A DNA stretch of 44,389 bases. Source: Psychrobacter piechaudii (lineage in GTDB: Bacteria > Pseudomonadota > Gammaproteobacteria > Pseudomonadales > Moraxellaceae). Each line of letters starts with the position of its first letter. Within the stretch, counting starts at the first letter, position 1. This document shows, piece by piece, positions 1 through 44,389 of this stretch. The stretch lies in NCBI RefSeq assembly GCF_900162825.1, contig NZ_FUGE01000214.1:1-44389 (forward strand). The letters are read 5' to 3'. The position numbers and the translations under genes were made by a program. The notes under the pieces were generated by a model that was not told the DNA's origin, ran no database searches, and saw nothing but the letters and a program-made list of their open reading frames with translations.

Positions 1-395
1 TAAATTCACCACCAAGCTTGTTAAAGATAACAGCTTAATTGTGGTTGGTGATGTTAAATCTCGCTCATTTACAACTAGAAAAACCAATCTAGCTAAATCG
101 ACATACGATGCCGGATGGTTTGAACTTAAACGACAACTGGAATATAAATGCAAGCATGCAGGTTGTCAGCTTGAGATGGTAAATGAGAGTTACACTACCC
201 AGACCTGCTCGTACTGCCTTAAAATAAGTGACAGTAGCTTGAGGGTAGAGCAGGCTTGCGAATAAGAGGATGGACTTGTGCTGAGTGTGGCACATGGCAT
301 GATAGAGATACCAATGCTGCTAAGAACGCCCTTGCGGGCGGGCTTGACCGTCTAGCTGTAGGAATCCCCTCGGTTTAGCGAGGGGAGGAAGTCAA
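1..395 (+). pseudogene. 3' remnant of IS200/IS605-type tnpB (copy 1) with right end
   Basis: This is the C-terminal third of a TnpB (OrfB) protein, cut by the window edge. It matches the intact copy at 33123-34229 through the RuvC-II segment (VVGDVKSRSF) and the first zinc-finger pair (CSYC). A one-base deletion near 235-260, relative to the intact copy, shifts the frame and causes a stop at 263-265. The second finger half (CAEC), HDRD motif and final codons continue in another frame to a TAG at 376-378. A perfect hairpin (CCCCTCG 366-372, CGAGGGG 379-385) and the terminal GTCAA at 391-395 mark the element's right end, as in IS608-like elements. The product cannot be a working TnpB. The end of the repeat lies only 111 bp before the downstream ABC operon. 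Confidence 0.85.
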
Positions 396-32962: not shown

Positions 32963-33084
32963 AGTCGTTCCTCTTTTGAATAAATACTGAGTCAGTTAAC
33001 AGTGTTTATCACCGGTCACCATAAAACCATCCGTTTCAAGGGGGGGATATAAGATGACATATACTGTCGTGATAAGTAATTAAA

Positions 33085-34246
33085 AGGTTGTAAGTTAAAA
33101 CTAACCTCGCCATACTAAAGATATGAAAACCCTCAAGCTACGCATTAAAGACAAGCACGTAAAAGAGCTGAATCAGCTAAGCGGTTCGGTGAACTTCGTG
33201 TGGAACTATGTTAATGCGCTTTGCTTTGAGCATTTAAAACGTACCGGTGAGTTCTTTAGTGCTTATGATCTAAGTCAGTACACTAAAGGAAGTGGTGAGT
33301 ATTTAGGTTTGCATAGTCAAACCTTGCAAGCTATTAATGAGACTCACGCTAAATCACGTAAACAGTTTAAAAAAGCTAAGCTTAATTGGCGTACCAATCG
33401 TCCTGATGCAAAACGCAAATCACTGGGCTGGATACCTTTTAAGAAATCTGCTATCAAGTATCTACATACCAGACAAACGGGAAAGAAAGCACTTAAATCA
33501 ACCATACGGCTATCACTCTCTAAAGGTGACAAGTTAATCATTAACGTGTTTGACAGCTACAACCTGTCTTTGTATCAAATCAACACGCTTGAGATAGTAC
33601 AAGACAGTCGTAATCGTTGGTATGCGTGTATTACTGTTAAAGATTACCCTAAACAAGTAAGCGGTACGGGTAGTGTTGGCATTGACTTAGGCTTAAAAGA
33701 AGCTGCCACCACGTCAAACGGCGAAAAGCTAATTCCTAAGCAAACTCAAAAATGGGCGCATAAATTAGCAACCGCTCAGCGCGCCAAGAATAAAGAGCGT
33801 GTCAAAGCAATCCACGCCAAAATTAAAAACACAAGATTAGATTTAATCCATAAGTTCACCATCAAGCTTGTTAAAGATAATGCTTTAATTGTCGTTGGTG
33901 ATGTTAAATCACGTTCATTTACAACTAAAAAAACCAAGCTGGCTAAATCGACATACGATGCAGGATGGTTTGAGCTTAAAAGACAACTGGAATATAAATG
34001 CAAGCATGCAGGTTGTCATTTTGAGATCGTAAATGAGAAATACACTACCCAGACCTGTTCGTACTGTCATAAAATAAGTGATAGTAGTCCGAAAGGTAGA
34101 ACAGGTCTTGGAATAAGAGGATGGACTTGTGCTGAGTGTGGCACGTGGCATGATAGAGATATCAATGCTGCTAAGAACATCCTTGCGGTCGGGCTTGACC
34201 GTCTAGCTGTAGGAATCCCCTCTGTTTAGCGAGGGGAGGAGGTCAA
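33085..34246 (+). mobile_element. IS200/IS605-type element carrying only tnpB (intact copy)
   Basis: Single-gene element between the HolD-like gene and serC. A bulged hairpin at 33085-33107 (AGGTT..AGTT/AACT..AACCT) resembles the imperfect left-end hairpins of this group and is my guess for the left boundary, which is uncertain. The right end has the stem CCCCTC (34217-34222) / GAGGGG (34231-34236) and ends GTCAA at 34242-34246. No tnpA lies in the window, so movement would need a transposase in trans. Confidence 0.65.
33123..34229 (+). CDS. tnpB: RNA-guided nuclease-type TnpB (OrfB), altered RuvC-II site
   Basis: TnpB proteins are RNA-guided DNA nucleases, ancestors of Cas12, encoded by IS200/IS605 elements. 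This 368-aa copy is complete: N-terminal helix-turn-helix/OrfB region (~1-50), central domain, RuvC-I aspartate D188 in GSVGIDLGL, zinc finger C312/C315/C336/C339 and RuvC-III HDRDINAAKN (D344/D346). At RuvC-II, where active TnpB has Glu in VVED, this one has Gly (G259 in IVVGDVKSR). Candidate substitutes are E284 and E290 in the following helix. The same GDVKS reading is kept in copy 1, so it is a lineage trait rather than a fresh mutation. Activity is uncertain. Confidence 0.9.
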   Translation: MKTLKLRIKDKHVKELNQLSGSVNFVWNYVNALCFEHLKRTGEFFSAYDLSQYTKGSGEYLGLHSQTLQAINETHAKSRKQFKKAKLNWRTNRPDAKRKSLGWIPFKKSAIKYLHTRQTGKKALKSTIRLSLSKGDKLIINVFDSYNLSLYQINTLEIVQDSRNRWYACITVKDYPKQVSGTGSVGIDLGLKEAATTSNGEKLIPKQTQKWAHKLATAQRAKNKERVKAIHAKIKNTRLDLIHKFTIKLVKDNALIVVGDVKSRSFTTKKTKLAKSTYDAGWFELKRQLEYKCKHAGCHFEIVNEKYTTQTCSYCHKISDSSPKGRTGLGIRGWTCAECGTWHDRDINAAKNILAVGLDRLAVGIPSV

Positions 34247-34262
34247 CGCTTTGATAATTGTA
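34130..34262 (+). ncRNA. Predicted omega (right-end) RNA of the tnpB element
   Basis: In this family the guide RNA scaffold overlaps the 3' end of tnpB and the right-end hairpin, and the guide is the flanking sequence just past the element. The 3' scaffold boundary would be 34246 and the guide about 34247-34262 (CGCTTTGATAATTGTA). The 5' end given is arbitrary. Confidence 0.35.
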
Positions 34263-34329
34263 TTATACTTATCCAATTAACCTAAAATGCTATACCCCCA
34301 CCCACCTTATTTTGTTTTGTAGGAAAATT

Positions 34330-44073: not shown

Positions 44074-44389
44074 TTGACTTCCTCCCCTCGCTAAACCGAG
44101 GGGATTCCTACAGCTAGACGGTCAAGCCCGACCGCAAGGATGTTCTTAGCAGCATTGGTATCTCTATCATGCCATGTGCCACACTCAGCACAAGTCCATC
44201 CTTTATTCGCAAACCTGCTCTACCCTCAAGCTACTGTCACTTATTGTGTGGCAGCACGAGCAAGTCTGGGTAGTGTAACTCTCATTTACCATCTCAAGCT
44301 GACAACCTGCATGCTTGCATTTGTATTCCAGTTGTCGTTTAAGCTCAAACCATCCTGCATCGTATGTTGATTTAGCTAGATTGGTTTTT
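44074..44389 (-). pseudogene. 3' remnant of IS200/IS605-type tnpB (copy 3) with right end
   Basis: Minus-strand copy cut by the window edge. It ends with the same GTCAA (44078-44074) and the perfect hairpin CCCCTCG/CGAGGGG (44084-44103) as copy 1. It shares copy 1's one-base deletion near the zinc finger, has a further deletion in AATAAAGG and a CSYC to CSCC-type change with ACACAATAAG, so it is more decayed. It is not a functional gene. Confidence 0.85.

What the first reader, a model, noticed from the sequence alone, without database searches (positions are those of the whole stretch)
33123..34229. TnpB lineage lacking the RuvC-II glutamate
G259 occupies the position of the catalytic Glu (VVED to VVGD), while RuvC-I, RuvC-III and the zinc finger are intact. 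Copy 1 has the same Gly, so the change was inherited. Either the acid was relocated to a nearby helix (E284 or E290), or the protein is a non-cutting RNA-guided binder. Both have been reported among TnpB relatives, as I recall.
Basis: partly seen in the sequence, partly recalled or inferred. Interest (0 to 1): 0.6.

Follow-up and report, generated by a model that had tools for sequence, protein, structure and literature searches.

The report
TnpB with glutamate moved to zinc finger
A transposon gene for an RNA-guided DNA cutter seems to lack a key catalytic amino acid, but its relatives show that the acid sits in another, already described place in the protein, so this is most likely an ordinary working member of a known group.

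Summary
The TnpB at 33123-34229 has Gly at residue 259, where most TnpBs carry the RuvC-II glutamate. That observation is correct and inherited, but the acid is not missing. E305, followed by six residues and the first zinc-finger CxxC, is at the 'alternative glutamate' (Ealt) position published for Fanzors and some bacterial TnpBs (PMC10711439). E305 is invariant in 98 of 98 full-length rows (84 different proteins). Of 70 wider rows, 38 have G259 with E305, 32 have E259 without E305, none has both or neither. Mimivirus Fanzor2, of solved structure, aligns E467 with E305. The gene fills a TnpA-less IS200/IS605-type element (33010-34246) with a TTTAT target motif, TCAA end, paired guide-RNA scaffold, and an empty target site in two relatives; 19 intact copies from four genomes give median dN/dS 0.105. 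I conclude it is a cutting nuclease using D188/E305/D346, a member of the known Ealt group; cutting itself is inferred. Mildly notable: 71 left-end matches in one 2.8-Mb genome, and none of the 38 Ealt rows fits the published Ealt search expression.

The parts
33005..33009 (+). TTTAT, target motif left of the element (putative TAM)
   Evidence: 51 of 57 distinct left ends found without using the motif (own genome and relatives) are preceded by TTTAT
33010..33122 (+). Left end of the element, with a degenerate subterminal hairpin
   Evidence: Boundary from copies and from the empty site; this copy's own left end folds no better than shuffles
33123..34229 (+). tnpB, 368 aa, Ealt type
33684..33686 (+). 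D188, RuvC-I catalytic Asp (DLG)
33897..33899 (+). G259 at the canonical RuvC-II Glu position
33972..33974 (+).
33990..33992 (+).
34035..34037 (+). E305, alternative (Ealt) Glu, inferred catalytic
   Evidence: 98 of 98 close rows; exclusive with E259 in 70 rows; aligned with Fanzor2 E467
34056..34139 (+). C4 zinc finger, C312 C315 C336 C339
34158..34160 (+). D346, RuvC-III catalytic Asp
34172..34246 (+). 3' part of the putative guide-RNA (omegaRNA) scaffold, overlapping the end of tnpB and ending TCAA
   Evidence: First hairpin paired in 78-80 of 82 distinct sequences with changes on both sides; the second hairpin was part of the search pattern and is not independent
34247..34266 (+). Putative guide, first 20 nt after the right end (length assumed)
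   Evidence: Follows TTTAT at the empty site in two relatives with one difference, at position 8; 100 distinct right flanks among copies
1..395 (+). Degraded copy ('Copy 1'): residues 244-368, frameshifted, with right end
44074..44389 (-). Degraded copy: residues 270-368, frameshifted, with right end

Best explanation
This is a TnpB of the alternative-glutamate (Ealt, Fanzor-like) type in a TnpA-less IS200/IS605-type element. Shown here: the canonical Glu position is Gly, and an invariant Glu (E305) stands directly after the next core strand, seven residues before the first zinc-finger Cys. Inferred: E305 completes the RuvC site with D188 and D346; the protein binds the RNA made from its own 3' end and right end, recognises TTTAT plus the guide, and cuts the empty donor site, helping the element to be restored or spread after excision by a Y1 TnpA acting in trans.
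For: E305 invariant in 98 of 98 full-length rows, 84 different proteins, and in 28 of 28 own-genome loci reaching it among those fetched. Of 75 wider rows, 70 readable at both places: 38 G259/E305, 32 E259/other, none with both or neither; the two types fall on two sides of one branch, 100/100. ExxxxxxCxxC in 38 of 38 Ealt rows and 0 of 32 others. Mimivirus Fanzor2 (9b0l) reads NVNEYLTTKTC, E467 aligned with E305; whole-fold Z 20.7 to 9b0l and 22.6 to ISDra2 TnpB 8h1j. AlphaFold2 model, mean pLDDT 84.1: D188 ends strand 183-189, G259 is near the end of strand 253-260, E305 follows strand 299-304, D346 is at the start of helix 345-363. Median dN/dS 0.105 over 171 pairs of 19 intact copies from four genomes. 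Target motif, right end and flanks, empty site, paired RNA hairpin.
Against: No cutting was measured. No atomic coordinates were available, so the distance from E305 to D188/D346 was not measured; pTM is only 0.51. None of the 38 Ealt rows matches the full published search expression: the RuvC-I to Glu gap is 112-114 instead of 120-160, and the zinc loop is 19-20 in 35 rows instead of 12-18. The dN/dS set holds intact copies only. Three Moraxella rows are truncated and lack D346 and the second Cys pair, and two M. catarrhalis rows have a reworked RuvC-I, so the count of 98 for D188 holds two doubtful alignments.
Confidence: 0.88

Rival explanations
1. Nuclease-dead RNA-guided binder (TldR-like): loss of the RuvC-II Glu abolished cutting, and the protein only binds or represses its target.
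For: The canonical Glu is absent in all 98 close rows; cutting has not been assayed.
Against: A replacement Glu is invariant and exclusive with the canonical one; D188, D346 and the zinc finger are kept in the 29-row alignment; copies sit in standard element boundaries with unrelated flanks, not beside one regulated gene.
Confidence: 0.07
2. The catalytic acid was supplied by E284 or E290.
For: E284 is kept in 97 of 98 close rows.
Against: E290 is E/D/T in 32/31/35 of 98. In wider rows E284 is E in 17 of 38 Ealt and 16 of 32 canonical, E290 in 20 of 38 and 18 of 32, so neither compensates. Both exist in ISDra2. Both lie in helix 282-296, not at a strand end.
Confidence: 0.02
3. The element is decaying and the protein no longer matters; the Gly is one of several degenerative changes.
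For: Many copies in this genome are fragments or frameshifted, though many fragments are cut by contig ends; the window copy's left end folds no better than shuffles; no intact Y1 TnpA was seen in the genome.
Against: Intact copies with median dS 0.41 show dN/dS 0.06-0.19, and G259/E305 is shared with bacteria of other families.
Confidence: 0.03

Closest known systems
Ealt TnpBs with a D-Phi-G RuvC-I motif (Yoon et al. 2023, PMC10711439; sections 23, 28, 30 and passages read)
   Same: No Glu at the canonical place, Glu six residues before the zinc finger, DLG motif
   Different: Shorter RuvC-I to Glu gap (112-114) and mostly longer zinc loop (19-20), so the published search expression misses all 38 rows tested
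Fanzor2, e.g. mimivirus L79 (PDB 9b0l)
   Same: Glu at the same place before the zinc finger, similar overall fold
   Different: Fanzors carry DPG and IS607 or eukaryotic transposons (PMC10711439); here DLG in an IS200/IS605-type element
Canonical TnpB, ISDra2 (8bf8, 8exa, 8h1j)
   Same: Fold, zinc finger, both Asp, also the E284 and E290 equivalents
   Different: Glu at the RuvC-II strand, no Glu at position 305
TldR nuclease-dead repressors (PMC13418256, passages only)
   Same: TnpB-derived, RNA-guided
   Different: TldRs have inactivated nuclease domains and many are linked to non-transposon genes; here the site is rearranged and the gene is in a mobile element

Membership tests
TnpB (RNA-guided endonuclease family) | Match above the curated cut-off of a TnpB model | tested here: met
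   NF040570, 254 bits against 100
TnpB (RNA-guided endonuclease family) | RNA-guided DNA cleavage | not testable with these tools
   needs an assay
Ealt TnpB / Fanzor-type RuvC | Glu followed by six residues and the first CxxC, no Glu at the canonical place | tested here: met
   38 of 38 Ealt rows, the window's included, 0 of 32 others
Ealt TnpB / Fanzor-type RuvC | Full published search expression, D{P}G x(120-160, as I read the printed '120160') E x6 CxxC x(12-18) CxxC x(4-8) D (a filter, not a definition) | tested here: not met
   0 of 38 rows; spacings differ
Ealt TnpB / Fanzor-type RuvC | E305 within metal-binding reach of D188 and D346 | tested here: inconclusive
   Order of strands fits; no coordinates available
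Pro-Fanzor / Fanzor | DPG motif in RuvC-I | tested here: not met
   DLG
TldR (nuclease-dead repressor) | Inactivated RuvC site | tested here: not met
   D188, D346 and a Glu at the Ealt place are kept; activity itself not assayed
IS200/IS605-type element | Insertion 3' of a short fixed motif without target duplication, TCAA-type right end (features recalled) | tested here: met
IS200/IS605-type element | Own Y1 TnpA gene (present in some groups only) | tested here: not met
   The element 33010-34246 holds tnpB alone; both full-length G002 copies have a full Y1 TnpA match 81 bp from tnpB, divergent

The most novel reading that the evidence does not exclude
A compact Ealt lineage carried by IS200/IS605-type elements in Moraxellaceae, other gammaproteobacteria and viral-collection contigs, missed by the published Ealt search expression, which may have moved its glutamate independently of the IS607/pro-Fanzor line and which, with the reduced collateral cutting suggested for such sites (PMC10711439), can persist at 70 or more left ends per genome.
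Probability: 0.15. Interest if true: 0.45.

Novelty: new member of a known kind. Interest (0 to 1): 0.25.

Why it matters
It turns an apparent loss of the active site into a testable active-site layout, and warns that judging TnpB 'deadness' only at the canonical Glu would misfile Ealt proteins as inactive. The many copies, many guides and a readable target motif make it a convenient system for comparing cutting, and collateral cutting, by Ealt and canonical TnpBs from one genome.

Tried and rejected
E284/E290 as replacement: rejected by conservation. Nuclease-dead binder: not supported (see rivals). Distances in the model: no coordinate file was available. Rfam: only sub-threshold matches, best HgcC 19.4 bits against a gathering score of 50. 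Single-strand DNA folding of this copy's left end: no better than shuffles. No row of the solved-structure searches was named SpuFz1. Paper searches: TnpB with Psychrobacter listed 1 paper, on a Pseudoalteromonas plasmid by its title (listing only); TnpB with Moraxellaceae and copy number 0; Ealt and rearranged-site wording 0, 3 and 2; TnpB with Fanzor, TldR or inactivation terms 43 (25 listed), 15 (10 listed) and 1; none of the titles shown is about this lineage. The PNAS 2023 TnpB census and the Science Advances 2023 Fanzor paper are not held and are recalled only. Whether ISXfa1, shown active in PMC10711439, is Ealt could not be read from the passages seen.

Bias told: the 38 Ealt rows were mostly found by similarity to this protein, so their single branch is partly by construction; near-identical rows were kept; 5 of 75 rows with a gap at either place were dropped. 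Four overlapping loci were dropped before the own-genome tally. In one search the second hairpin was part of the pattern that picked the sequences. The left-end pattern included the target motif, so TTTAT frequency is taken instead.

Full report
Observation. The ORF at 33123-34229 is an intact 368-aa TnpB. Residue 259, where canonical TnpBs have the RuvC-II glutamate, is Gly. D188, D346 and the four zinc-finger cysteines are present. 'Copy 1' is a frameshifted fragment at window 1-395 that carries the same VVGDVK, so the Gly is inherited. The host is probably a Psychrobacter: the closest named TnpB matches are P. pasteurii at up to 92%; the own record is unnamed and TnpB is mobile, so this is an inference.

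What replaces the glutamate. Yoon et al. 2023 (PMC10711439; passages, sections 23, 30 and 28) define a canonical Glu about 50 residues before the zinc finger and an alternative one (Ealt) six residues before it, and report an Ealt group split into DPG and D-Phi-G clades. The window protein reads E305-KYTTQT-C312, exactly that spacing. In 98 full-length rows (84 different proteins, the window's own included), G259 and E305 are invariant, E284 is E in 97 and Q in 1, and E290 is E/D/T in 32/31/35. In more distant relatives, down to 44% identity, E305 stays while the residue at 284 is A, T, Q, M, I or S. Of 75 wider rows, 70 can be read at both places: 38 are G259/E305 and 32 are E259 with R, P, A, Q, S or V at 305; none has both and none has neither. 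In these rows E284 is E in 17 of 38 Ealt and 16 of 32 canonical rows, and E290 in 20 of 38 and 18 of 32, so neither tracks the change. A maximum-likelihood tree puts the two types on two sides of one branch, 100/100; the Ealt rows were collected mostly by similarity, so this is only partly independent.

Structure. The AlphaFold2 model (39-row alignment, mean pLDDT 84.1, pTM 0.51) places D188 at the end of strand 183-189, G259 near the end of strand 253-260, E305 directly after strand 299-304, and D346 at the start of helix 345-363; E284 and E290 lie in helix 282-296. In an RNase-H fold the ends of these parallel strands meet at the active site (established knowledge), and Yoon et al. report a topologically distinct but consistent position of the Glu in their models of Ealt TnpBs and Fanzors. 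The fold matches ISDra2 TnpB (8h1j, Z 22.6, rmsd 5.8, 322 aligned) and mimivirus Fanzor2 (9b0l, Z 20.7, rmsd 7.1, 327 aligned). Fanzor2 aligns its E467 with E305. In SpuFz1, E541 binds metal together with D383, N385 and D606 (PMC10432273, passage). Coordinates of the model were not available, so no distance was measured.

The element. Copies share a left end beginning CACC and a right end TCAA. Of 57 distinct left ends found without using the motif (own genome and relatives), 51 are preceded by TTTAT; 100 distinct right flanks show no shared sequence, as expected of guides. In the window the element is 33010-34246. Two relatives (G023, G005) have the empty site, TTTAT followed directly by the guide-matching sequence with one difference, at position 8. 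In the last 75 nt before TCAA, 82 distinct sequences keep a first hairpin paired in 78-80 of 82, with changes on both sides (for example G-C to C-G in 9); a second hairpin is also kept but was part of the search pattern. The own genome has 71 left-end matches (control 0) and, by my count, 45 places that begin at TnpB residue 1; many contigs end inside the element. Of its four Y1 TnpA matches, one has two stops, two are pieces of one split gene and the fourth is cut by a contig end, so no intact TnpA was seen but one is not excluded. In both full-length G002 copies a full Y1 TnpA match lies 81 bp from tnpB, divergent. Nineteen intact 1104-nt copies from four Psychrobacter-type genomes (own, P. 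pasteurii, P. coccoides, P. celer) give median dN 0.043, dS 0.41, dN/dS 0.105 (range 0.062-0.187, 171 pairs; 1 of 20 copies left out for length).

Mechanism. Most likely a working RNA-guided nuclease with D188/E305/D346, guided by RNA from its own right end to TTTAT plus guide, as established for TnpB in general. Shown: residue pattern, element ends, target motif, empty site, RNA pairing, purifying selection. Inferred: metal binding by E305, cutting, help to element maintenance, mobilisation by TnpA in trans.

Filing. It works like, and is a member of, the Ealt TnpBs by their defining residue (38 of 38 rows against 0 of 32). It is not a pro-Fanzor (DLG, not DPG) and has no sign of being a TldR. 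It fails the full published search expression because two spacings differ (0 of 38), so this lineage may be under-sampled in that survey. I found no paper on it in the held library.

Noticed in passing
L004, L268-L272, L274, L275, L280-L284 (own genome): A second insertion sequence (427-aa DDE_Tnp_1 transposase in L272) sits again and again in the TnpB element's left-end hairpin, in most at ACTTCAGGG next to GCATAGGTATCTACACAA; 13 of the 60 own-genome loci examined show a junction, L271 with a different flank and L004 and L268 in the other orientation. It looks like one element targeting the hairpin of another.
   Followed up: partly
L279 (own genome, contig C153:8400-10480): A 332-bp mini-element with the left end, the guide-RNA hairpins and the TCAA right end but no tnpA or tnpB: a possible guide-only, non-autonomous derivative.
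   Followed up: partly
L278 (own genome, contig C292): Another left end is followed by a different element with reading frames resembling IS66 ORFs (resemblance recalled, not searched).
   Followed up: no
L203 (same place as L126) and L209 (genome G002): Two Ealt tnpB copies read here share a small insertion and frameshift just before E305 while a full Y1 tnpA match stands beside each; two further G002 places also stop matching at residue 290. A broken tnpB seems to have spread with its tnpA.
   Followed up: partly
L166 (own genome, contig C151): The same genome also holds canonical TnpBs (E at 259, R at 305), one beside a tnpA with two stop codons.
   Followed up: partly
L067, L068 (Moraxella catarrhalis): TnpB copies with a short repeat in RuvC-I (SVGIALGLKDSGLKDS) that changes the D188 region.
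   Followed up: no
L044, L064, L073: Records titled Streptomyces cinereus (two) and a Sphingobacterium MAG carry Moraxellaceae-like copies (75-79% identity): mislabelled or contaminated records are likely.
   Followed up: no
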